Assembly (NCBI GenBank): GCA_036488875.1
Contig: DASXGW010000004.1
Coordinates: forward strand, 186,001-250,000
Length of the DNA: 64,000 nt
Source: Candidatus Baltobacteraceae bacterium
GTDB taxonomy: Bacteria > Vulcanimicrobiota > Vulcanimicrobiia > Vulcanimicrobiales > Vulcanimicrobiaceae
Reading direction: 5' to 3'
The stretch's first letter is position 1; the number at the start of each line of letters is the position of its first letter. The notes below the pieces were generated by a model, which was given only the letters and a program-made list of their open reading frames with translations, was not told the origin of the DNA and did not search any database. Positions 32,824 through 43,568 of the stretch are shown piece by piece. Both the position numbers and the translations under genes were made by a program.

Positions 32824-32917
32824 GGGAGTGTACGGGTCTGGTGGCCCGCACGGTCTTCAAAACCGCTGAGGCCGGGGCAACTCGGCTGGTAGGTTCGATT
32901 CCTATACGCTCCCGCCA
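32824..32917 (+). tRNA. selC: tRNA-Sec (anticodon UCA)
   Basis: A 94-base tRNA with selenocysteine-tRNA hallmarks. It has an 8-bp acceptor stem (GGGAGTGT with ACGCTCCC, one G-T pair), a 6-bp D stem with a 4-base loop (CGGGTC-TGGT-GGCCCG) and an anticodon loop CTTCAAA with TCA in the middle. A long variable arm contains GCCG...CGGC, followed by a T arm TAGG-TTCGATT-CCTA and an encoded CCA. It decodes UGA as selenocysteine together with SelB, whose gene is at 14234-16090. Its 3' end is the attachment repeat of the island that follows, so the tRNA is kept intact by the integrated sequence. Confidence 0.93.
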
Positions 32918-32918
32918 C
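32892..32918 (+). repeat. Attachment-site direct repeat, left copy (3' end of selC)
   Basis: A 27-base sequence covering the T loop through CCA of selC plus one base, identical to 38675-38701. tRNA 3' ends are classic sites for site-specific integrases. Confidence 0.88.
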
Positions 32919-33194
32919 CTAGCAACAGCATTGTTCTTAGCTGCTCTCTGCGTTCGATTGCCGAATCCCTGAACTCTGAAGGACACACAACGCGACGTGG
33001 CCTCCGATGGAATCCCGTGCAAGTAAAGCGCGTGCTCGCACACCTTTGAGTTAATGCCGGGGCTGAAGCCACGGCTGCGACGCGCCTTCGACCGCGGAAA
33101 CTTGCGATCTCGACGTAAGGTCCCGGTGTTTGCCTGAGCCGGGTACTACGCTAGACGACCGCTTGCAGAGAATAGAGGCGTCAAACACTATTGG
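32919..33194. other. Left end of the island without a recognised gene
   Basis: The 276 bases between the left repeat and the KTSC gene contain only short, unconvincing reading frames. This is where an integrase gene would be expected in many tRNA-integrated elements, but none is present. Confidence 0.5.
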
Positions 33195-33389
33195 CTACTT
33201 GGTGCGCTCGTACTCATATGCGTCCCTTATGAACTCATTGAAGTAGGAGCCCTTAGAGCTTGCATTGAGGAACGTTTTGTATACCAGTAACGGTACATCC
33301 TTAAAACGATACAGATTTCCATCGAAAAAACGTACGCTTAGCACGCTGGTCTCGCGGTCATAAGCGATGGATTCAATTGTCGACGACAC
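33195..33389 (-). CDS. KTSC domain protein
   Basis: A 64-residue protein matching the short KTSC domain pattern: IAYDRETSVLSVRFFDGNLYRFKDVPLLVYKTFLNASSKGSYFNEFIRDAYEY, with the family's SKGSYFN core. The domain occurs alone or fused to nucleic-acid-related proteins; its biochemical role is not firmly known. The GTG start lies 12 bases after the stop of the HTH-XRE/nuclease-like gene, so the two form one leftward unit inside the island. It may be an accessory factor of the restriction system (inference). Confidence 0.75.
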   Translation of the reverse strand: MSSTIESIAYDRETSVLSVRFFDGNLYRFKDVPLLVYKTFLNASSKGSYFNEFIRDAYEYERTK

Positions 33390-33401
33390 TCCAGGAGCGC
33401 C

Positions 33402-34328
33402 TTATTCAGTAGGCATTTCCGGGAGAGCTAACTGGCGCTCCTCGACGATACGCGGCCTAGCGTAAGGATTTAAATCGTCTACTTGGTAAACGGTGCTCAT
33501 GTTGTCGTGAACTTTTGTTTTAATAACAGCGGTTTTTCCGGAATCGCCCGAAGTACTGCTAATATCGAAGTCGTCCTTGGTCAAAACGCCAACCTTAGCC
33601 TCCCAAACAAAGGCGCGAAGTCCTCGATTCGCGGTGCCCCGTGTGAACACACCTGCTTCATCTGTGAGAACATACCGGAATGTGATATACGTTCCCGCCT
33701 TTGGCAGATGTCCTTTGGGACGGTTTGTTTCGAGAGCTACCTTGAGTTCTAAGTCAACGGCGGGAGACTTCTGCGGAAGAAGATCGGGATAAGTATGCGG
33801 TCCATTTCTTATGTAAAGGCCGTTCGACGCTTGAGCGATTCCCGCTCCGAGAAGGTTGCCGACCATTGAAGAAAGGTTCGCGAGTTCCACTAAGCCGGCA
33901 AGGCGGTTTGAGCCGTGCGCGATGAGCTGATCGTCGATTATGTCCAGCGTTTCGTAACAATATCTGATCGCTTCAACGAGCATTTCGCATGTTAGGCCGG
34001 TTAGGTGAGTCAACTGCGCTACGTTGTGGCAGAACTCCGTCGAAACGGCTCGTTCGGTTCGCTCGGGAGCTTTTGGCGGCGCGGCTTCGAGACCCGCTCG
34101 CCCTTCGGCCATAGCGACCAAGCCGGAAAGTGGAAACCCTAGGGCTTCGGCGAGCTTCTGCGCCATGCCGAGCGTGGGCTGGGAGTTGCCCTTTTCTAAG
34201 ACGCCGATGTAGGTCCGGTCAATCCCGGCAAGCTCGGCGAGAGACTCATGAGTAAGATTCTGATCGTTGCGCAGTTCTTTTAAGATCGCAAGAAATGCGG
34301 CGACTAGTCCCTCGTCATTTTCCGACAC
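33402..34328 (-). CDS. HTH-XRE protein with a C-terminal PD...ExK nuclease-like region (candidate fused control/restriction protein)
   Basis: A 308-residue protein in two parts. Residues about 8-72 form an XRE/Cro-type helix-turn-helix (LRNDQNLTHESLAELAGIDRTYIGVLEKGNSQPTL), the fold of restriction-modification control (C) proteins. The remainder is not a family I can name, but residues 181-196 read PD(x)9-DLELK, the arrangement of PD-(D/E)xK nucleases (Asp182, Glu194, Lys196). A KGH and a beta-rich FRYVL segment follow, and WEAK at 242-245 is an alternative ExK. It is divergent from the cytosine methyltransferase across a perfect palindrome, exactly where a C protein or restriction enzyme gene is expected. 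The GTG start has no clear ribosome site. The nuclease assignment is an inference; it could be only a regulator. Confidence 0.6.
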   Translation of the reverse strand: MSENDEGLVAAFLAILKELRNDQNLTHESLAELAGIDRTYIGVLEKGNSQPTLGMAQKLAEALGFPLSGLVAMAEGRAGLEAAPPKAPERTERAVSTEFCHNVAQLTHLTGLTCEMLVEAIRYCYETLDIIDDQLIAHGSNRLAGLVELANLSSMVGNLLGAGIAQASNGLYIRNGPHTYPDLLPQKSPAVDLELKVALETNRPKGHLPKAGTYITFRYVLTDEAGVFTRGTANRGLRAFVWEAKVGVLTKDDFDISSTSGDSGKTAVIKTKVHDNMSTVYQVDDLNPYARPRIVEERQLALPEMPTE

Positions 34329-34365
34329 GCGATGAGTCTAGGCGAGGAGGGAAAGCTTGGTCAAC

Positions 34366-34379
34366 GAGAATATATTCTC
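34366..34379. promoter_or_regulatory. Perfect 14-bp palindrome, candidate C-box operator
   Basis: GAGAATATATTCTC is its own reverse complement. It lies in the 68-base gap between the divergent XRE and methyltransferase genes, 4 bases before the methyltransferase ribosome site. C-protein operators sit in this position in type II systems, so binding by the XRE domain is likely (inference). Confidence 0.6.
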
Positions 34380-34383
34380 CACC

Positions 34384-34390
34384 GGAGGTG
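34384..34390 (+). promoter_or_regulatory. Ribosome binding site that sets a TTG start for the methyltransferase
   Basis: GGAGGTG lies 6 bases before TTG 34397, which starts directly on the conserved methyltransferase fold. This argues against a start at 34295, which would add 34 residues unlike any family member and overlap the divergent gene. Confidence 0.75.
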
Positions 34391-34396
34391 CAAGGT

Positions 34397-35554
34397 TTGG
34401 CGTATCGGCTTTTTGATCTGTTCTCTGGAACAGGTGCCTTCTCAAAGGGTTTCGAGAACTCTCTGTCCGCCGAGTACCAAACGGTTTTCTGCAACGACTT
34501 ACTCCCGGTTGCTGTGCGAACCGCTACTGCCAATCATCCCCATGCAAAGTGTGTCAGCGGCGACATAAGAAAGCTTCGACGCGAACACGTCGCGGAGATG
34601 CTCAAGCTACGTCGTGGGCAGGTTGACGTGATAATCGGAGGTCCCCCTTGCCAGGGATTTTCTTCGATAAGGCCTTTTAGATCATCCGAGGAGGACGATC
34701 CACGGAATAGCCTCTTTGAAGAGTTTGCTTCATTCGTAAACTATTTTCGACCAAGAGCACTCGTTATTGAGAACGTCGTTGGGCTCGCGACGCATAAGGG
34801 TGGCGAGACGATCGAGGCAATGCAAACCTGCTTCGAGCAACTCGGCTACGATACCGACTGGCGCATCCTTAACGCGGCCCACTTTGGTATACCGCAGCGT
34901 AGGGAGCGACTTATTTTCATAGGATTGCCACGCGGAGCGAAGATAACGTTCCCTAACCCAACTCACAGTTCCAATGGAAGCACGATTGGCTACCGTGATC
35001 GGACACGCATGCTTTTGCCTGATGAGGATACGCTATTCACCAGGGCGCCAAACCTTGAGCCCGCTATAACTGTGATGGAAGCAATCGGCGACTTACCAAG
35101 GATCGAATCCGGCGAGGAATCACTGGCGTATGACGTAGCACCGACCAATGCGTACCAAGCAGCTAGGCGAAAGGGCTTGACTAAGCTAACGCTCCACGGA
35201 TCGACGAAGCACACCAAGAAGATGCTTCGTATCATCAAACACTCCGGTCCAAATATTTATTCGATACCGAAGCACCTTATAACCAGCGGCTTTAGCTCGT
35301 GTTATTCGCGGCTCGATGGCGACTGCCCATCGGTAACGATCACCGTTAATTTTGTTCATCCGGCATCGAACCGTTGCATACATCCCGTACTGAACCGTGC
35401 CCTTACCCCTAGAGAGGGCGCACGACTGCAGTCATTCGATGACGATTTTGTTTTCTGCGGAAATCGTTCACAGATCGTAAAGCAGATTGGTAATGCCGTG
35501 CCGCCGCTCCTTGGCAAAGTAATAGGCGAGCACCTCGCATCCCTGATCGCCTAG
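34397..35554 (+). CDS. DNA (cytosine-5-)-methyltransferase
   Basis: A 385-residue type II-style C5 methyltransferase with the canonical motifs in order: I (RLFDLFSGTGAFSKGF, residues 4-19), IV with the catalytic Cys (GGPPCQGFSS, Cys85), VI (ENV, 125-127), VIII (QRRER, 167-171) and X (GNAVPP, 365-370). The variable target-recognition region lies between VIII and about residue 300. It transfers a methyl group from S-adenosylmethionine to cytosine in a specific site; the site cannot be read from sequence. TTG 34397 with GGAGGTG is the start. A vsr gene follows after 2 bases, and the probable control/restriction gene is divergent. The gene is AT-richer than the chromosome around it. Confidence 0.93.
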   Translation: MAYRLFDLFSGTGAFSKGFENSLSAEYQTVFCNDLLPVAVRTATANHPHAKCVSGDIRKLRREHVAEMLKLRRGQVDVIIGGPPCQGFSSIRPFRSSEEDDPRNSLFEEFASFVNYFRPRALVIENVVGLATHKGGETIEAMQTCFEQLGYDTDWRILNAAHFGIPQRRERLIFIGLPRGAKITFPNPTHSSNGSTIGYRDRTRMLLPDEDTLFTRAPNLEPAITVMEAIGDLPRIESGEESLAYDVAPTNAYQAARRKGLTKLTLHGSTKHTKKMLRIIKHSGPNIYSIPKHLITSGFSSCYSRLDGDCPSVTITVNFVHPASNRCIHPVLNRALTPREGARLQSFDDDFVFCGNRSQIVKQIGNAVPPLLGKVIGEHLASLIA

Positions 35555-35556
35555 CG

Positions 35557-36000
35557 ATGACCGCACAAGAGGGACACCTCCGGAAATCCCTGCAAACTTC
35601 AGTTCTCGTATCGAGAAGAATGCAGAATGTCGCCACAAGGGACACGCCGTGTGAACTCGCAGCTCGACAAGTTCTTTCGGCCTATCACGTTCGATACAGG
35701 CTCCACCGAGCGGATTTACCGGGTCGGCCTGATATCTTTATCCCGCGCATAAGGGTTGCGGTATTCGTTCACGGCTGCTTTTGGCACTCGCATCATTGTC
35801 CAAAAGGTAGAAGGCAACCGCGGACAAATGTGGCTTTTTGGGCGGTGAAACTCGCTAATACGGTCGCGAGAGATCGTCGCACCGTGCAGCGGCTACGTGC
35901 CGTTGGTATATCTGTCGTAATACTCTGGGAGTGCGAACAACAGACGTTCCTCGCAAATCTAAGGCGTACCATAGGCACGTATCGTCGAACCGCACTGTAA
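35557..36000 (+). CDS. vsr: Very-short-patch-repair (Vsr-type) DNA mismatch endonuclease
   Basis: A 147-residue protein with the Vsr pattern: RDTPCELAARQVL, YRLHRADLPGRPDIFIPRIRVAVFVHGCFWHSHHC and PRTNVAFWAVKLANTVARD, ending in ILWECE. Likely catalytic Asp59 and the Zn/active-site residues His72, Cys74, His77, His79 and Cys81 are present. Vsr nicks next to T:G mismatches that arise when 5-methylcytosine deaminates, so it protects sites modified by the adjacent methyltransferase, whose stop is 2 bases upstream. The classic MSxIR start motif is only partly present (VSRRMQNVATRDT). Confidence 0.9.
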   Translation: MTAQEGHLRKSLQTSVLVSRRMQNVATRDTPCELAARQVLSAYHVRYRLHRADLPGRPDIFIPRIRVAVFVHGCFWHSHHCPKGRRQPRTNVAFWAVKLANTVARDRRTVQRLRAVGISVVILWECEQQTFLANLRRTIGTYRRTAL

Positions 36001-36227
36001 GGCGTAACGTCTGGACGCATGTGGTTTTGACGATTAACGTACCGCCTAGGCTGCCCGTTGCGATGACGCGCGACTAGGACTGGCGGAGCAAATGGTTCGG
36101 AAAGCTCGATTCGCGTCTGAACTTGGGTACTGTACAACCGCGCAGCCGCGGGTGAAAGAAGGATAGGCAGCACCCAACTCGCAAGCTGTGCCACTTCAAA
36201 TAATGCGACTAGCGGAGGCTCTGTTTC
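36001..36227. other. Intergenic spacer inside the island
   Basis: A 227-base gap between vsr and the helicase gene without a convincing reading frame. It ends in the GGAGG ribosome site of the helicase and probably contains a separate promoter. Confidence 0.4.
36214..36218 (+). promoter_or_regulatory. Ribosome binding site for the island helicase
   Basis: GGAGG lies 9 bases before GTG 36228 and supports that non-ATG start. Confidence 0.65.
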
Positions 36228-38534
36228 GTGCCCGACGCGCTCTATTTTGGTACGACATGGCAGACAGCAGGCTGGCTACTCGAACACGAATCTATACGCA
36301 CGCCACTCCTTGACGCACTCAGCGATCCTGAAAAGCTAAAGGTAGTGCAGATGGGACTGTTTAGGCAGGGCCCAGTTCGAATGGTCTATGACGATAAATT
36401 GGGGCTGGTTTGCTTTTGGAACATCGATTATCTTACCGGGTTGGCGGATGAGGGGCTCGGCTTTATCAAGCTTTCTGGGACGTACGGGCTAGTCAATTTT
36501 CCGAGGATTGCCTTTGAAGCGTTCGAACGCGAGCTGACCGTTCTGAACTATCGCTTGCGTAACCTCATATTCGAATCCGCCTACTATCATCAGGACTTCG
36601 AGGACGGTAGTCATAAGGTTCTTGCGGGGAGAGGCACTGAAGCACGCGACTACAGTATCGGCTATGCCGAAACCCAGCTCGCCGTCAGAGCACAGGCGGT
36701 ATCAAGAAAGGTCGTTGTTTGCGTTGGTCCGGAGGGCGACTGGAAGCGCGCTGGCGCTGCGGCAACTGCTGAGCGGGCCATCCTGGGCGACCTCTCTGAG
36801 TCCCTTGTAGAGCGCATAAGCGAAGCGCGAGGCTCTGCTTCACTATTGACGCAAAATGCGCTCGTCGAACTTCGTATGGCAATTAGTCCACCGATACAGC
36901 AGCCGCCGCTCACCGAGGTAACAAGGCGCGCCGGGCCTCTCGCCGTTGAAGAATCCGACAAATATAGAACCGCCGGATGGCCCTTCGAGCAGTGGTTGTC
37001 CGATGGCACCACGCTTTCCGAGGACCAGCTAAATATCCTCATGGGCGATGGTGTCCTCAAGCATCCAATCCGAATAATTGGGCCGGCTGGTGCAGGCAAG
37101 ACTTTGCTAATGCAGTTGATGGCCATGCGACTGCAAACCATCGATCCATCCGCTTCAAAGATAATCTTCATTACGCACAACCAGCCGATGGAGTTAGCTA
37201 TTCGAGAGCGTTTCGCGGTGCTCGGCGCAAAGCAGTTTACTCTGGCCAACAATATAGCCGTGACCACGCTTGAGCGTTATGCAAATGACACACTGCTGCT
37301 AAGGGACGTTAATCTACTTGAGCCGACCAGTGCAGATGCGAAGAATACGCAGCTCGCATTCGTTAATCAAGCGTTTTTGGAGGCCGCAAAGATCAGCGAA
37401 TCCATCGTTAAGGGATCCGATGTACTCGGCGTAATCGCTAAGGACCTTAATACGTTTGGCGAATTTGTGCGGTCCGACTTCTCCGTGGCAATCAAAGCGC
37501 AAAATCTCCAATCCGATAAGACGTCATATGTAAACTCCTCCGTTGCGCTCGGTAAACTGCACGGGATTCTTACGCCTGATGAGCGAGCGGTCGTATATCA
37601 AGCGTTCCAGATATATCAGAATATGCTCGATGAGTACGGCGTGCTTGACACTGATGACGTGGCTCTTACGATGCTTGGAAAATTAAGCTCACCTGTCTGG
37701 CACCACCAGCGCAAATCTATGGGATTTGACTATATATTTGTAGACGAGGCGCAATTGTTCAACGAAAATGAGCGCAAGATTTTTCAGTACCTCGGCAATG
37801 GGAAGCGACCATTTGTGCCAATCGTTCTTGCTCTCGACGAGGGCCAGCAGTTTTTCGGCGAATCGCGGGTAGGTCTAGCTCTTCTTGGGATTAAGGACGC
37901 CGAACGCGAGAATCTTCGATACAATCATCGAATGACGGCTAGAATCGCCGACTTGGCTTTTTACGTGATTTCGCAGAGCACGGAGCTTTTTACGCTGGAT
38001 TTCCCTGACTACACGAAGACCACCGAGACGCCCTCTCACACGTCCGATGGAAGCAAGCCACACTTGGAGCGCGTCGGAGCCGACGAATTTCTATCTAACG
38101 CGGTCGCCCAACTTGTTAGGGACTGTCGCCGCGATGGATTAAGGCAGATTGCGATCGTTTGTTTTAACGAGTCCTACTGGTTGGAGCTCGAAGAGAAACT
38201 CAAGGACAAATTAAAGGACTTGGATTTTTTCCCGATGTTGCGGCGTGGGGAGCGCCCGCGCGGACATAGCTTCACGACCCTTTGCCGGCCGGCAATTGTC
38301 GGCGGCCAGGAGTTCGACGCAGTAATCGCCGTCGGCCTGGAACAGGGGGTCGTTCCAAAATATGTTTCAAATTCGGCACTGCAAACCGCTCTTGAACAGC
38401 AAGCTCTTAGGGATGTGTATGTTACATTTAGTCGCGCGAAGGACAGGCTGACGGTATTGATCGGTAGTCAGGCCGATCCCGCGCCAATTCTAAGGGGTGC
38501 AATTGAGCAGGGCCTTCTCGAAGTCATACCATAG
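36228..38534 (+). CDS. SF1 (UvrD/Rep-like) helicase with an unrecognised N-terminal domain
   Basis: A 768-residue protein. Residues 1 to about 240 are not recognised. Motor motifs follow: Walker A GPAGAGKT (residues 285-292), Walker B YIFVDEAQ (about 502-509), the LDEGQQFF segment, LRYNHRMT (motif IV-like Arg), and the C-terminal GQEFDAVIAVGLEQGVVP and YVTFSRAKDRLTVLIG typical of UvrD_C/SF1 helicases. It should be an ATP-driven DNA translocase. It is the last gene before the right attachment repeat, on the methyltransferase-vsr strand. The N-terminal domain may be a substrate sensor or nuclease; I see no PD-ExK motif there. A defence role is inferred from location. Confidence 0.82.
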   Translation: MPDALYFGTTWQTAGWLLEHESIRTPLLDALSDPEKLKVVQMGLFRQGPVRMVYDDKLGLVCFWNIDYLTGLADEGLGFIKLSGTYGLVNFPRIAFEAFERELTVLNYRLRNLIFESAYYHQDFEDGSHKVLAGRGTEARDYSIGYAETQLAVRAQAVSRKVVVCVGPEGDWKRAGAAATAERAILGDLSESLVERISEARGSASLLTQNALVELRMAISPPIQQPPLTEVTRRAGPLAVEESDKYRTAGWPFEQWLSDGTTLSEDQLNILMGDGVLKHPIRIIGPAGAGKTLLMQLMAMRLQTIDPSASKIIFITHNQPMELAIRERFAVLGAKQFTLANNIAVTTLERYANDTLLLRDVNLLEPTSADAKNTQLAFVNQAFLEAAKISESIVKGSDVLGVIAKDLNTFGEFVRSDFSVAIKAQNLQSDKTSYVNSSVALGKLHGILTPDERAVVYQAFQIYQNMLDEYGVLDTDDVALTMLGKLSSPVWHHQRKSMGFDYIFVDEAQLFNENERKIFQYLGNGKRPFVPIVLALDEGQQFFGESRVGLALLGIKDAERENLRYNHRMTARIADLAFYVISQSTELFTLDFPDYTKTTETPSHTSDGSKPHLERVGADEFLSNAVAQLVRDCRRDGLRQIAIVCFNESYWLELEEKLKDKLKDLDFFPMLRRGERPRGHSFTTLCRPAIVGGQEFDAVIAVGLEQGVVPKYVSNSALQTALEQQALRDVYVTFSRAKDRLTVLIGSQADPAPILRGAIEQGLLEVIP

Positions 38535-38674
38535 CATCTCGTCTAACATTTTCTAACGGACCGGTCGGAAACGGAAGGGACACGACGGCATTGGCAGGGA
38601 GCCAAGGCTTCTGAAAATGCAACAGGCCAACACTATTCGGTAACGGTAGGAATTGCCCGGAACCCCCGAATTGT

Positions 38675-38701
38675 GGTTCGATTCCTATACGCTCCCGCCA
38701 C
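38675..38701 (+). repeat. Attachment-site direct repeat, right copy
   Basis: A 27-base copy identical to the selC 3' end at 32892-32918. The sequence upstream of it has no tRNA-like 5' portion, so this is a displaced tRNA end, marking the distal junction of the island. Confidence 0.88.
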
Positions 38702-38715
38702 AAACACTGCCTTGT

Positions 38716-38738
38716 TGCCACACTGGGGAAGTGTGGCA
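38716..38738 (+). other. Perfect 9-bp hairpin just outside the right island end
   Basis: TGCCACACT (38716-38724), loop GGGGA, then AGTGTGGCA (38730-38738). It lies 14 bases after the right repeat, so before integration it stood directly downstream of selC and may have been its terminator. No T-run follows, so termination is uncertain. Confidence 0.5.
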
Positions 38739-38948
38739 GTTCGCACGCATCATGTGGCAATTCGGCTTTTGCAATCGGACTTCACGTATAGAAAATCTAC
38801 TGCCGTGGAACCTCAAAGCGGCGGCGCACGATCCGGCACACCTGGCCAATCGTAGCGTAACAGGCCAACTCCCCGCGCAGGTCTAATCCCGATCTTGAAT
38901 GCTAGACGCCGAAGACGACCTTGAACCGACGCTTACTACGTACCACCG

Positions 38949-39514
38949 ATGACGCTTGAAACGCTCAATTCGGTCGCTTCTGTAGGGACCTTTATCGTCA
39001 TTGCTTTGACCGCGCTCGCGGCGCTCGTACAACTTCGCCACCTTCGGCGCGGCAATTGGCTTGCAGCGCAGTTGACCATCCTGGAAATGTGGCAGTCCGA
39101 TAAGGTTCAGGGGCCGTACGACTACATCAAGGAGGAGCTCGGGGAAAAGCTCAAGGATCCGCGATATCGTCACGAACTGGAGTACGGCCCGATCAACCGC
39201 AGCAAGCATCCTGAGATGTACATGATCGACTGGAATGCACAGCTCGGACTCATTGTCAGCGAGGGATTGCTCGACGATCATTTCTTGCAGCTATACTCGC
39301 CCGCGATCGATACGAGTGGCGGAACTTAGAGCCCGTCGTCGCGCTACTGCGCCGGCAACGCGGTAACGATCAATTCACACACTTCGAATATCTCGTCTCC
39401 CGCATGCGACAACTCCAAGCCCGTCGCAACAAGAGTGTCTTCAGCGGTGCAACGCCGCGAATCTCGATCAACGACCCCTGGCTCGCGAGCGACCACCCGG
39501 AGGACTCCGGCTAG
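38949..39514 (+). pseudogene. Frameshifted DUF4760-like membrane-anchored protein gene
   Basis: The first frame (38949-39329) encodes a short N-terminal membrane helix (VASVGTFIVIALTALAALVQL), the QLTILEMWQSDKVQ segment and a helical domain, then stops. Moving one base back near 39308 restores a protein-like continuation (RYEWRNLEPVVALLRRQRGNDQFTHFEYLVSRMRQLQAR) that runs to the stop at 39512-39514. Together they make about 188 residues with the layout of DUF4760-type proteins. This looks like a single-base indel; a sequencing error or programmed shift are alternatives. It lies just beyond the right island end. Confidence 0.65.
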
Positions 39515-39726
39515 GCGGTTGATACCCGACCCAACGCTACGAATACTTCAAGAAGCATCGATTCGCGTATCCCAAAGCCACCGCGAAGGCGACTTGGCCG
39601 GATTGCCACAGCGCTCGTACGACCTGCGGCGCTCCCGCTTGGGTGATCGACGTTCTCCTCAAGCCAGCGCTGGGCGCCGACGTCCTAGCTCGTCAAGTGG
39701 TTGAGTTCAATTGCAAGGGACCAGTG
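39515..39726. other. Spacer between the frameshifted gene and clpP
   Basis: This 212-base stretch is open in one frame but has no good start and no recognised similarity; it may hold decayed gene remnants. Confidence 0.35.
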
Positions 39727-40311
39727 CTAACGCATGAGGATTTCGTCGATAAGCCCGTATTCCCGCGCGTCCTGTGCGTTCATGTGATAATCGCGTTCCA
39801 GATCGGCAAGGATTTTTTCGACCGTTTTTCCGGTTCGCTCCGAATAAATTGTCGCTAGCAATTGACGCGTCGCGAGCATCTCGCGTGCGTGAATCTCGAT
39901 GTCCGTAGCCTGGCCACCAATCTGCGAGACCCATGGCTGATGAATGAGCATTTTACTTCTCGGCAGCGCCATGCGCTTTCCGGGGGCACCCCCGACCAAG
40001 AGCACCGTAGCGGCCGAAGCGGCAAGGCCTGCGCAGATCGTCGCGACGTCCGGTTTCACGAACTGCATCGTATCGTAGATCGCAAGTCCGGCGGTCACGC
40101 TGCCGCCCGGACTGTTGATGTAGAGGTCGATATCGGCTTGCGGATCCTCCTTCTCTAGGAAGAGCAGCTGCGCCATCACGAGATTAGCAAGAGCATCGTC
40201 AATCGTTCCACCGACGAAGACGATACGGTCCTTTAAGAGGCGAGAGTAAATGTCGTAGGCGCGTTCGTACCGCCCATTATTCTCCAGTACGGTCGGCACA
40301 AGATGTCCCAT
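39727..40311 (-). CDS. clpP: ATP-dependent Clp protease proteolytic subunit
   Basis: A 194-residue serine peptidase of normal ClpP length. It has INSPGGSV, the catalytic Ser in GLAASAAT, the His in MLIHQPW, and the Asp in the [17 protein letters not shown] region. Tetradecamers of ClpP degrade proteins unfolded by ClpX, ClpA or ClpC. No clpX or tig gene is adjacent, so it may be one of several paralogues. The Ser motif GLAASAAT is slightly unlike the usual GMAASMGA. Confidence 0.95.
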
Positions 40312-40415
40312 GAGACGCTTTATAGCATCCCGGAGCGGAGCGCGGAAAGGCCATCGTGGTCAAAAGCGGACACCGTAATCGCAGGAGCTGCAAGAGCTAC
40401 GACGGAGTAACCGTC

Positions 40416-40607
40416 ATGAACACGTTGACACCCGAGCAGCAGCAGCGGATTGTTCGCCTTCTCGAGTCAGGCAAGAGCGCTCGCGAGGTCGAGAAAATCA
40501 CGGGACACCGGCGTGAAACGATTTCTCTGTACGGGCGGCTCGCCGGCGTCTTCCCGCGAACCGTCTCTGAACGGCACGGCTCGGAAACGAACGCGCTCGC
40601 CGCTTAG
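40416..40607 (+). CDS. Small helix-turn-helix protein (63 aa)
   Basis: From ATG 40416 (GGAG at 40404-40407) the product is MNTLTPEQQQRIVRLLESGKSAREVEKITGHRRETISLYGRLAG plus a short tail. The GKSAREVEKITGHRRETI segment is a helix-turn-helix similar to the N-terminus of IS21-type IstA or resolvase-like HTH_23/38 domains. No transposase core follows, so it could be a stand-alone regulator or a transposase remnant. An in-frame start at 40356 is less likely, having no ribosome site. Confidence 0.55.
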   Translation: MNTLTPEQQQRIVRLLESGKSAREVEKITGHRRETISLYGRLAGVFPRTVSERHGSETNALAA

Positions 40608-40617
40608 CTCCCGCCAA

Positions 40618-41916
40618 TCACGCGTCGACGCGAAGGGTCAGAATCGCGACGTCGTCGGGGTGGCTTCCGCCGTCGATGACGATCTCGCGTATCACGGCGG
40701 CTGGACGGCGCGCGAAGCGCACGTCGTGCCGGCGCATCGCCTCGATGAGGTGATCCCACGCTGCCGGAACGTCTCGGTTCCACTCCAGCAGACCGTCGGT
40801 GAAAAACACTGCGAACATTCCCGGCTTCATCAGCACCGTTTGCGACCGCCGAATCCTGCCGCTGTCCAAGTCGTGCAACCCCAATGGGAGGCTCCGCTCC
40901 GATATCGGATCGGCGATCGTTCCGTCGTGCATCCACATCAGCGGCCCGGGATGACCGGCCGAAGCGCACGACATCGTTCGATGAACGGGATCGACGATGG
41001 CGACCAGCGCGGTGCTGAAGGCGTCTTCGGAATCTAAGCGCATCAGCCGATCGGCGACGATCAATGCGCCCGCGGGATCCGGCTCGCTGAGGATTGCGGC
41101 GCGCAGCGCGTTTCTCAATCGTCCCATCCACACCGCTGCCTCTAGGCCGTGCCCAAGCACGTCGCCCACGGTAATGGCAATGCGGCCGTCGGGCATCTCA
41201 AAAGCGTCGTACCAGTCGCCGCCTACAAGCAGCTCTTCCGACGACGGCTCGTAAAAGCCGTCGAGAACCAAACCCGCGACGTAGGGAAGCTTCCCGGGCA
41301 GCGCCGCTTCCTGAAATCGTGACGCGATGTCGACGGTCTTCGAATGCAGTATTGCCTTGGCGATCGCGGAGGCGCAGCGGCGCGCAAGGTCGGCGGCAAA
41401 GCGCAAATCGATTTGGTCGAACGGCGCTTCATCCGACGTTTTTGCCAACGTCATTGCGCCGAGCACGCCCGAGGTCTGCGATACCAGCGGAAGAATCATC
41501 ATGGACTGGTAACCCAAGCGCTGCATGAACGCTCGGTGATCGTCGCTCGTCGAATGTTTCTCTAAATACTCGTCGTCGATGCGGGTAACCAGCATCGAGT
41601 TCCGGCTGCGTATGACCTCGCGAACCGGATGCGGTGCTTTTCCCTCTTTATGCCGTAAGTAGCGGCCGGCATTTTCGAGCTCCGAGCTGCGCGCGGGATC
41701 GCGATGAGCGGCTGCGACCAACCGCGGCGAATCCTCCGGGCCAAGGTCGATGATGCAAACGTTGGCAACCGTCTCAACTGCCGCCGCGCACACGTTTTGC
41801 AGCGTTTCCGAATAATCGAGCGATCGATCCAAAATTTCGCCCGCGCGAAGCAGCAGCTCGAAGTAATAAAAATCGCGCTCGCGCCAGGCAAAAGCGCGGC
41901 GTTCAACTTGACCCAT
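40618..41916 (-). CDS. GAF-domain PP2C/SpoIIE-type serine phosphatase
   Basis: A 432-residue soluble protein: a GAF domain (about residues 30-200; MILPLVSQTSGVLGAMTLAK) followed by a SpoIIE phosphatase domain. The phosphatase part shows the metal-binding DWYDAFEMPDGRIAITVGDVLGHGLEAA, AGHPGPL, FFTDGLLEW and HPDDVAILTLRV. RsbU-like enzymes dephosphorylate anti-sigma-factor antagonists and so switch on stress regulons. No anti-sigma or antagonist gene is adjacent. Confidence 0.9.
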   Translation of the reverse strand: MGQVERRAFAWRERDFYYFELLLRAGEILDRSLDYSETLQNVCAAAVETVANVCIIDLGPEDSPRLVAAAHRDPARSSELENAGRYLRHKEGKAPHPVREVIRSRNSMLVTRIDDEYLEKHSTSDDHRAFMQRLGYQSMMILPLVSQTSGVLGAMTLAKTSDEAPFDQIDLRFAADLARRCASAIAKAILHSKTVDIASRFQEAALPGKLPYVAGLVLDGFYEPSSEELLVGGDWYDAFEMPDGRIAITVGDVLGHGLEAAVWMGRLRNALRAAILSEPDPAGALIVADRLMRLDSEDAFSTALVAIVDPVHRTMSCASAGHPGPLMWMHDGTIADPISERSLPLGLHDLDSGRIRRSQTVLMKPGMFAVFFTDGLLEWNRDVPAAWDHLIEAMRRHDVRFARRPAAVIREIVIDGGSHPDDVAILTLRVDA

Positions 41917-42080
41917 GTAATCGGTAGTATCGCCGAGCGGCGGCCTTATGGCTAGAGCCGTGCGGTCGTCTGCTGGGAACGGGTGAAGGATATTTCACTA
42001 ATAAGAATTCAGTCATGCCGATTCTGGAAACGCGATGAGCCTTTTGCCGATCGGGCGCGGCGTGATACGATAGCCCGGAT

Positions 42081-42329
42081 TTGTCGACTTTTCCTCATCT
42101 CCCCGACGAGATTTGGGCGCGGTTAAAAACGTGGGCAAAAACGCAAGCCGCCTCCACGGCACAGCCCTCACTGGAAGAGAGCGAAGCCTACGTTCGCCGC
42201 ATTTGCGGCGAACTTACCGGCAGGCCTAGCGTCCTACCGCCCGGCGCCGTTGCATTTTATGCAAGCGAGCTTCGCGACATGGTGGCCAAGTTTCGCGCAG
42301 CGATCGATGCCGAGGGCGGCGTCGCCTAG
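42081..42329 (+). CDS. Small hypothetical protein (82 aa)
   Basis: A short open frame from TTG 42081 (STFPHLPDEIWARLKTWAKTQAAS, ending AAIDAEGGVA), mainly helical and charged. No family is recognised and no strong ribosome site precedes it. It occupies otherwise empty space between divergent and convergent neighbours; codon use is normal for the chromosome. Confidence 0.35.
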   Translation: MSTFPHLPDEIWARLKTWAKTQAASTAQPSLEESEAYVRRICGELTGRPSVLPPGAVAFYASELRDMVAKFRAAIDAEGGVA

Positions 42330-42343
42330 TCCGAACACCGGCC

Positions 42344-42916
42344 TTAATACCCGTTACGAGCGGGCGTAGCGCGAACGACCGTTGCGCCGCAGCCGACCAA
42401 TAGCGATTCCAGGCGGCGCCAAAAGGCCAGTCTCTCCAACAACGGATTCAAGTAATCCGTCATCGTGCAGAAGTTGATCGCGTACGGTGACTTATGGTGC
42501 TTGGCATGCTGGTTGCGCGATTGAAGAATCCCGGCGCGTTGGAGTTGCGCCACCCATCGCGGCACTCGCGAGCTGTGCGCCCAGAGATGGACCTGGTTCG
42601 ACTGCGAGAGCAGAAGCACGACGAAGTACGTTTGCCACGCGTGAACGTGGAACAGCAGCAGCGCCGCGGTAACGACCGCCGCAGCCAAGATGCATACGCG
42701 GTTGGTCTGCCAATAGTGACCGGCGCGAATCGTTCCGGGCATGCGATGGTGGTCGATGTTATCGCGAACGATCCAGCGATCCAATAGCTCCGACTTGCCC
42801 GGCGCAAGCCACGTGTCTTCCGCCCAGTGCAGGAGTCCCGAGATGAAGTCCGCGATCGCGAGGCAGGCGGCGATCCAGAGTGTGGCGATTGCGGCGCTCG
42901 AAACAATGTATAGCAT
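42344..42916 (-). CDS. CarF/TMEM189 (Kua)-family lipid desaturase-like protein
   Basis: A 190-residue membrane protein from ATG 42916. The first helix runs into ADFISGLLHWAEDTW (His30), close to the family signature DFxSGxxHWxxDTW. DNIDHHRMPG (His56, His57), QVHLWAH (His110, His114) and QHAKHHKSPY (His137, His140, His141) supply the His clusters expected of the diiron site. Family members include Myxococcus CarF and human TMEM189, plasmanylethanolamine desaturases that create the vinyl-ether bond of plasmalogens. It stands alone; no ether-lipid synthesis genes are adjacent, so its substrate is inferred. Confidence 0.75.
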   Translation of the reverse strand: MLYIVSSAAIATLWIAACLAIADFISGLLHWAEDTWLAPGKSELLDRWIVRDNIDHHRMPGTIRAGHYWQTNRVCILAAAVVTAALLLFHVHAWQTYFVVLLLSQSNQVHLWAHSSRVPRWVAQLQRAGILQSRNQHAKHHKSPYAINFCTMTDYLNPLLERLAFWRRLESLLVGCGATVVRATPARNGY

Positions 42917-42971
42917 GGGCAAACGGTAGCCGCCGGAGGCCGTCTAAGGCGTCCGTAAAACTACGGATCGT

Positions 42972-43568
42972 ATGAAGAGCTTTGCAACCGAGACGAGCCG
43001 GGTCGAGGCGTTTAGCGACGGCGTCTTCGCCGTCATCATCACGATCATGGTGCTCGAACTGCGCCCGCCATCGGGGACCGAGTTTCGCGCGCTCTTGGAG
43101 ACGCTGCCGGCTATCGCGACGTACGCCGTGAGCTTCGCCTTCATCGGCATCTATTGGAACAACCACCACCACATGCTGCGGGCGAGCCGCGGCGTGGACG
43201 GACGCGCGATGTGGGCGAACCTGAACCTGCTGTTCTGGCTTTCGCTGGTGCCGTTCTCGACGGCGTGGCTGGGTCGCAATCCGTTAGCCGTCGGCCCAAC
43301 CGCGTTCTACGCGATCGTGTTCTTGCTCGACGCCCTCGCCTACGCGCTGCTCGTGCGCGCGCTGCTGGCGGTCAACGGTAAAGAGGCACCGTTTGGCAAA
43401 GCCGTGGCGAGCGATCTCAAAGGAAACGTGTCGATCGTTCTTTACGTCCTCGCCGTCGTCGTGGCGTTCGTCTACCCGGTCGTAACCGACGTGCTCCTCG
43501 TCGTGGTCGCGATCACTTGGCTCGTTCCGGATCGGCGCTTCGAGCCGCTCATCAATCTAGAGAACTAA
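42972..43568 (+). CDS. TMEM175-family (DUF1211) membrane protein
   Basis: A 198-residue protein with about six membrane helices. The first contains RVEAFSDGVFAVIITIMVLEL, the FSDGxFAxxxTxxVLxL signature of the TMEM175/DUF1211 family. Animal TMEM175 is a lysosomal potassium/proton channel and bacterial versions form tetrameric potassium-permeable channels. The IYWNNHHHMLRASRG loop is also family-typical. It is divergent from the CarF-like gene by 55 bases. Confidence 0.85.
   Translation: MKSFATETSRVEAFSDGVFAVIITIMVLELRPPSGTEFRALLETLPAIATYAVSFAFIGIYWNNHHHMLRASRGVDGRAMWANLNLLFWLSLVPFSTAWLGRNPLAVGPTAFYAIVFLLDALAYALLVRALLAVNGKEAPFGKAVASDLKGNVSIVLYVLAVVVAFVYPVVTDVLLVVVAITWLVPDRRFEPLINLEN

What the first reader, a model, noticed from the sequence alone, without database searches (positions are those of the whole stretch)
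32892..38701. Compact restriction-modification island inserted at the 3' end of selC
A 27-bp piece of tRNA-Sec is duplicated at both edges of a 5.8-kb AT-richer block carrying a KTSC protein, an XRE/nuclease-like protein, a C5 methyltransferase, Vsr and an SF1 helicase. All cargo is DNA-handling. No single named defence system has this exact set (DISARM, BREX and simple type II systems differ), so it could be a new arrangement.
Basis: partly seen in the sequence, partly recalled or inferred. Interest (0 to 1): 0.8.

Follow-up and report, generated by a model that had tools for sequence, protein, structure and literature searches.

The report
Integrase-less restriction island at tRNA-Sec
A 5.8-kb block of foreign DNA sits at the end of the tRNA gene for selenocysteine: it carries an ordinary two-gene restriction-modification (DNA-immunity) system whose cutting enzyme is fused to its own regulator, plus unrelated passengers, and its right end carries a 145-bp attachment sequence that recurs more than 150 times next to tRNA fragments in related bacteria.

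Summary
The 27-bp tRNA-Sec 3' end is duplicated exactly at 32892-32918 and 38675-38701, the only two copies in the genome. The block between is 52.9% GC; same-sized flank windows average 62.6% (sd 0.8).

The cargo is not a new five-gene system. The XRE/nuclease gene and the C5 methyltransferase form a recurrent two-gene type II R-M system: 34 of 37 relatives from many phyla have the pair adjacent. The XRE protein is a controller protein fused to a PD-(D/E)XK nuclease; a C-box-like operator lies between the two genes. Vsr accompanies 2 relatives; the helicase accompanies none.

The less expected part is the carrier. The island has no integrase, only the tail of a serine recombinase. Just inside its right repeat lies a 145-bp non-coding module, found in 46 of 149 genomes of the phylum (over 150 copies). 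Copies examined mostly sit directly before a tRNA 3'-end copy (Leu, Glu, Sec). Thirteen of 100 checked have a tyrosine integrase within 500 bp beyond the tRNA copy, all convergent, as in an attP site. Of 25 stretches between successive modules, 22 lack an integrase. I read the island as a non-autonomous, CIME-like tRNA element whose cargo is an R-M system.

The parts
32824..32918 (+). tRNA-Sec (selC), target gene, left intact by the insertion
   Evidence: ARAGORN; relatives' selC 80-99% identical
32892..32918 (+). attL-side copy of the 27-bp repeat (T-arm to 3' end of tRNA-Sec)
32945..33046 (+). remnant: last ~34 codons of a small serine recombinase (PF07508 part)
   Evidence: PF07508 22.2 bits against cut-off 21.1; similar to the C-terminus of an intact serine recombinase on contig C14 of the same genome
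33195..33389 (-). KTSC-domain protein, 64 aa, passenger
   Evidence: PF13619 E 2.2e-21
33402..34328 (-). controller-protein/restriction-endonuclease fusion (XRE HTH aa ~11-72; PD-(D/E)XK nuclease aa ~104-290, D182, E194, K196)
34366..34379 (.). perfect 14-bp palindrome GAGAATATATTCTC, C-box-like operator between the divergent genes
   Evidence: GAC-N4-GTC core at the same place in 21 of 21 divergent relatives
34397..35554 (+). C5-cytosine DNA methyltransferase (modification enzyme)
   Evidence: PF00145 E 2.1e-59; the only PF00145 gene in the genome
35557..36000 (+). Vsr mismatch endonuclease
   Evidence: TIGR00632 122 bits against cut-off 98
36228..38534 (+). UvrD-type SF1 helicase of 768 aa with an unassigned N-terminal ~250 aa; independent cargo
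   Evidence: PF00580/PF13361; relatives 37-38% identical elsewhere in the family
38542..38685 (+). 145-bp conserved non-coding module, putative integrase arm region of the element; its last ~11 bp overlap attR
38675..38701 (+). attR-side copy of the 27-bp repeat (displaced tRNA-Sec 3' end)

Best explanation
The block is a non-autonomous (CIME-like) integrative element inserted at the T-arm/3' end of tRNA-Sec. Insertion restored the tRNA gene and left the 27-bp displaced 3' end as attR (shown by sequence). Its distal end carries a 145-bp arm module that in related bacteria forms an attP-like order module - tRNA 3' core - convergent tyrosine integrase, so insertion was most likely by a tyrosine integrase that the element no longer encodes or that acted in trans (inferred). 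Its main cargo is a type IIP-like restriction-modification system. The C5 methyltransferase protects host DNA. A controller protein fused to a PD-(D/E)XK endonuclease both autoregulates through a C-box-like operator between the divergent genes and cuts unmethylated DNA, so that restriction is delayed after entry into a new host (inferred by analogy to C-protein systems). Vsr would repair T:G mismatches from deaminated 5-methylcytosine at the methylated site (inferred). The UvrD-type helicase and KTSC gene are separate passengers.
For: Insertion: exact repeat unique in the genome, GC and GC3 contrast, plain selC without these genes in relatives, tyrosine integrases directly downstream of selC and convergent in other genera (G006, G020, G058, G069, G075). 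R-M: methyltransferase homologue beside the XRE-nuclease in 34 of 37 loci from many phyla; two exceptions end at contig edges and one is a gene fragment. The fusion occurs on a 10-kb mobilizable Psychrobacter plasmid with only this pair (55% and 62% identity). PD-x11-ExK invariant in 33 homologues. Nearest solved HTH structures are C.BclI and C.AhdI; model pLDDT 90; nuclease part matches NaeI (Z 9.8, 151 residues) and EcoRV (Foldseek prob 0.99). Some relatives have separate HTH and nuclease genes (Acidiphilium). Conserved operator. Carrier: module in 46 of 149 genomes; 13 of 13 neighbouring integrases convergent; 22 of 25 inter-module stretches without integrase.
Against: No relative with exactly the same two flanks and an empty site was found: G041 (same genus) joins selC directly to a gene that lies 4.3 kb beyond attR here. 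The left edge lacks the CCTTATTTTA motif that follows the core in 11 of 34 related places, so the element may be dead. The only recombinase trace inside is of the serine, not the tyrosine, type. The operator deviates from the relatives' consensus (GAATATATTC instead of GACTATAGTC). Nuclease activity and recognition site are unknown.
Confidence: 0.8

Rival explanations
1. A new five-gene defence system in which the KTSC, XRE-nuclease, methyltransferase, Vsr and helicase proteins work together, like DISARM or a helicase-assisted R-M system.
For: The genes are contiguous within one att-bounded unit, and methyltransferase, Vsr and helicase are co-directional.
Against: The helicase is absent within the flanks of all 37 R-M relatives. 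Helicase relatives occur without R-M genes and, in three cases, with a different ~300-aa partner. A 228-bp gap separates it from Vsr. No PADLOC system matches the set.
Confidence: 0.07
2. The island is a decayed autonomous genomic island: it once carried its own integrase beside selC, which was deleted, leaving an immobile relic.
For: A recombinase remnant lies where integrases sit in relatives; decay at this position is also seen in the second tandem island of G075 (31 integrase residues left) and upstream of selC in G041. The left-edge motif is absent.
Against: The remnant is of a serine recombinase, unlike the tyrosine integrases next to the modules. The R-M genes and both att copies are intact. 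Integrase-less units are the rule, not the exception, among module-bounded stretches.
Confidence: 0.4
3. The XRE protein is only a transcriptional regulator, and Vsr is the sole nuclease of the system.
For: Databases annotate it as a helix-turn-helix regulator; Pfam and NCBIfam see only the HTH.
Against: Invariant PD...ExK motif in 33 homologues; nuclease fold match to NaeI and EcoRV; HTH-less versions of the C-terminal part persist beside the methyltransferase; Vsr is absent from most loci.
Confidence: 0.06

Closest known systems
[quoted passage not shown] CR.NsoJS138I (PMC3850674)
   Same: Controller HTH fused to the N-terminus of the endonuclease, methyltransferase mostly divergent, symmetrical operator of GACT...AGTC type in between (PMC3115060 for the C-box form).
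   Different: The NsoJS138I endonuclease is a PvuII orthologue; here the nuclease domain is another PD-(D/E)XK family without a Pfam model. The methyltransferase is C5 and a Vsr gene follows. The operator in the window is a symmetric variant.
CIMEs (cis-mobilizable elements: att-flanked, without integrase or transfer genes; PMC5704250)
   Same: attL and attR at a tRNA 3' end, no integration genes, tandem accretion seen in relatives.
   Different: A 145-bp arm module is conserved on integrase-less units at several different tRNA genes; mobilisation has not been shown.
Dehalococcoides ssrA genomic islands (PMC3146451)
   Same: Tandem islands behind a tRNA-like gene, bounded by copies of its 3' end; 15 of them without an integration module.
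   Different: Those use one target (tmRNA) and a serine recombinase; here several tRNAs and, where present, tyrosine integrases.
selC islands of enterobacteria (e.g. PMC6174562)
   Same: Same target gene as an integration site.
   Different: Unrelated cargo; the enterobacterial islands are pathogenicity and fitness islands.

Membership tests
Type II R-M system with C protein (C-REase fusion) | Methyltransferase and endonuclease as separate, adjacent genes | tested here: met
   34 of 37 loci and a Psychrobacter plasmid
Type II R-M system with C protein (C-REase fusion) | Endonuclease with a nuclease active site | tested here: met
   Invariant PD-x11-ExK and nuclease fold; activity not assayed
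Type II R-M system with C protein (C-REase fusion) | C-type HTH regulator | tested here: met
   C.BclI, C.AhdI and C.Esp1396I are the nearest structures
Type II R-M system with C protein (C-REase fusion) | C-box operator | tested here: met
   GAC-N4-GTC core in 21 of 21 divergent relatives; the window has the symmetric variant GAGAATATATTCTC
Type II R-M system with C protein (C-REase fusion) | Cleavage and methylation of one recognition sequence | not testable with these tools
   Needs an enzyme assay or methylome data
CIME / non-autonomous tRNA island | attL and attR as direct repeats of the tRNA 3' end | tested here: met
CIME / non-autonomous tRNA island | No integration genes | tested here: met
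   The whole-genome PF00589 scan finds only a Xer-like gene and a fragment on other contigs; serine recombinase remnant only
CIME / non-autonomous tRNA island | No transfer genes | tested here: met
   None among the open reading frames of the 5.8 kb
CIME / non-autonomous tRNA island | Mobilised by a partner element | not testable with these tools
   Needs circle PCR or a mobility assay
DISARM | Core genes drmA (helicase), drmB (DUF1998) and drmC beside the methylase | tested here: not met
   Only the methylase resembles DrmMII; no drmA, drmB or drmC among the hits shown for the island proteins

The most novel reading that the evidence does not exclude
The island is one member of an undescribed, abundant family of integrase-less gene cassettes (cargo, 145-bp arm module, tRNA 3' core) that are moved in trans by tyrosine integrases of sister elements and stack up behind several tRNA genes in this bacterial family, acting as an integron-like gene-capture system built on tRNA genes.
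Probability: 0.35. Interest if true: 0.8.

Novelty: new variant of a known kind. Interest (0 to 1): 0.55.

Why it matters
It exposes a widespread restriction endonuclease family (fused to or separate from its controller) that databases label only as a helix-turn-helix regulator; the recurring pair and its operator make specificity and regulation directly testable. If the 145-bp module is the arm region used in trans, it also explains how an island without an integrase reached a tRNA gene, and gives a sequence tag for finding such cassettes.

Tried and rejected
Five-gene system: rejected, the set does not recur. PADLOC and NCBIfam give no named system for the whole set. Viral contigs and phages: only HTH-level hits, apart from one Streptococcus suis phage with a split nuclease homologue next to an annotated R.SnaBI/M.SinI pair. 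Module as a structured RNA or attC-like hairpin: RNAalifold finds almost no covariation (-0.29 kcal/mol) and Rfam has no match there. Module in viral contigs: the one exact 19-mer hit (L221) is chance, with no module match around it. Exact empty site: not found; the same-genus genome differs downstream of selC. Recognition sequence: could not be inferred from sequence. A defence theme for the other module-bounded stretches: not seen; peptidase, TPP enzyme, HNH nuclease, NB-ARC/cyclase and unknown genes. NaeI and EcoRV are named only as fold neighbours, not as family members.

Full report
OBSERVATION. The 27-bp 3' end of tRNA-Sec (T-arm to end) occurs twice, letter for letter, at 32892-32918 and 38675-38701. 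No other copy is found in the window with up to three mismatches or, exactly, in the 3.7-Mb genome. The tRNA (32824-32917) remains complete, and selB is on the same contig. The 5,756 bases between are 52.9% GC; windows of that size in the flanks are 62.6% +/- 0.8% with a minimum of 60.4%, and GC3 of cargo genes is 0.50-0.59 against 0.66-0.84 for the other window genes measured.

THE R-M CORE. A profile of the XRE protein and its 55%-identical Psychrobacter plasmid homologue found 37 loci in genomes from many phyla. In 34 of them a homologue of the window's methyltransferase (46-70% identity) is the adjacent gene; two exceptions end at contig edges (L094, L108) and one is a gene fragment (L109). 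Two layouts exist: divergent genes, as here, and convergent genes. In the convergent group the HTH can be a separate small gene before an HTH-less nuclease of ~215-240 aa (also the Acidiphilium plasmid). The Psychrobacter plasmid (10 kb, mobilizable) carries just this pair (methyltransferases 62% identical). So the minimal system is XRE-nuclease plus C5 methyltransferase.

THE FUSION PROTEIN. HTH part: the closest solved proteins are the R-M controllers C.BclI and C.AhdI, confirmed by structure comparison, with C.Esp1396I also near. C-terminal part: 33 aligned homologues share P181-D182 ... E194-x-K196, plus N202, K205, H207 and others, all invariant. The AlphaFold2 model (mean pLDDT 90) places a mixed alpha/beta domain at 104-290 that matches NaeI (Z 9.8 over 151 residues) and EcoRV (Foldseek probability 0.99). 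Pfam and NCBIfam have no model for this part. I conclude a controller-endonuclease fusion. Such fusions are known: CR.NsoJS138I was shown to be active in both roles (PMC3850674), but that nuclease is a PvuII orthologue.

THE OPERATOR. In the divergent group the intergenic region carries a GAC-N4-GTC palindrome in 21 of 21 relatives, and GAGAC-N4-GTCTC in 16. This is close to the classical C-box form GACTtatAGTC (PMC3115060). The window has GAGAATATATTCTC at 34366-34379, a perfect 14-bp palindrome in the same CCGGTG context; 35 of 20,000 shuffles of the intergenic region contain any perfect 14-bp palindrome. The recognition helix differs in parallel (GIDRTYIG here, mostly G(V/I)HRTTIG in relatives), which would fit a co-changed operator; this is inference.

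VSR AND HELICASE. Vsr is intact (TIGR00632) but accompanies only two of the 37 relatives (L093, L098), so it is an optional companion of a C5 methyltransferase. The UvrD-type helicase is found near none of them, by tblastn or by profile. Its full-length relatives (37-38% identity in three family genomes; more distant on plasmids) stand alone or follow a ~300-aa gene of unknown function. It is best regarded as separate cargo. The KTSC gene was not seen beside the R-M pair elsewhere.

THE SITE. selC is a recurrent insertion site in this family. Tyrosine integrases lie directly downstream of it, convergent, in G006, G020, G058, G069 and G075. G075 has two tandem islands bounded by copies of the selC 3' end, the second with only 31 residues of its integrase left. 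G019 has a 2.1-kb integrase-less insert bounded by such a copy. The only other genome of the genus (G041) has selC without this repeat, but its downstream gene corresponds to window position 42972, so a perfect empty site is not available.

THE CARRIER. The window island has no integrase. Genome-wide, PF00589 finds only a Xer-like gene and a fragment, both on other contigs. Just inside the left repeat is the C-terminal tail of a small serine recombinase (32945-33046, PF07508 above cut-off), resembling the end of an intact one on contig C14 of the same genome. At the right end, 38542-38685 is a non-coding module that recurs. BLAST found it in 19 of 99 family genomes; a profile built from 26 copies found it in 46 of 149 genomes of the phylum, over 150 copies. 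In the 21 fetched contig stretches, nearly all copies that reach the module's end run straight into a tRNA 3' end (TTCGAnTCC...). Where an intact tRNA lies nearby its 3' end is the one copied: tRNA-Leu(TAA), tRNA-Glu(CTC), tRNA-Glu(TTC), and tRNA-Sec in the window. In genomes scanned for both features, 100 modules were considered. Thirteen have a PF00589 integrase within 500 bp beyond the tRNA core, and all thirteen are convergent: the order expected of an attP site or of a junction between tandem elements. Of 25 stretches between successive same-strand modules less than 12 kb apart, 22 hold no PF00589 gene. The module shows repeats such as TCTAACATTTTCTAACGGA and no conserved RNA fold, as expected of protein-binding arm sites; this role is inferred. 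I therefore read the island as a non-autonomous, CIME-like element (definition in PMC5704250), a situation with a precedent in the Dehalococcoides ssrA islands, 15 of which lack an integration module (PMC3146451). Whether it is a relic or still mobilised in trans is open; the absence of the CCTTATTTTA left-edge motif found after 11 of 34 cores favours a relic.

VERDICT. Observation confirmed; interpretation partly supported. The defence cargo is a new member of a known kind, with an unannotated nuclease family. The carrier, integrase-less tRNA cassettes with a shared arm module in tandem arrays, is a variant of a known kind and the more interesting part.

Noticed in passing
L041:55-95, L120:1372-1409, L118:5738-5775, L121:5315-5352, L124:6113-6157, L125:9851-9877: In several relatives the 5' half of tRNA-Sec, up to the anticodon loop, is duplicated 1.3-16 kb upstream of selC in the same orientation, sometimes with an integrase nearby: apparently a second, opposite-sided insertion class at the anticodon loop.
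   Followed up: partly
L043:2999-3901, L072:3343-4314, L073:3416-4255: Relatives of the island's helicase are preceded by a homologous ~280-320-aa gene without a family match, on two plasmids and in G021: possibly an undescribed two-gene unit.
   Followed up: partly
window 38702-42970: The stretch between attR and the TMEM175-like gene (ORF 38949-39329, ClpP, PP2C-type phosphatase, desaturase-like gene) is missing beside selC in the same-genus genome; no repeat was seen at its far end. Homologues of the 126-aa protein occur in the selC regions of G063, G069, G070 and G071.
   Followed up: partly
L137:10417-12560 (G019): A 2.1-kb insert downstream of selC, bounded by a 28-bp copy of the tRNA end and holding one membrane protein with pentapeptide-like repeats, with neither integrase nor the 145-bp module.
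   Followed up: partly
L205:3213-3630 (G016:C209): A minimal unit of about 0.3 kb behind tRNA-Leu(TAA): essentially only the 145-bp module and the copied tRNA 3' end, like a miniature element.
   Followed up: partly
L181:3495-4844 (Streptococcus phage phi-SsuHCJ31_comEC): A broken homologue of the nuclease domain lies next to genes annotated R.SnaBI and M.SinI in a phage record.
   Followed up: no
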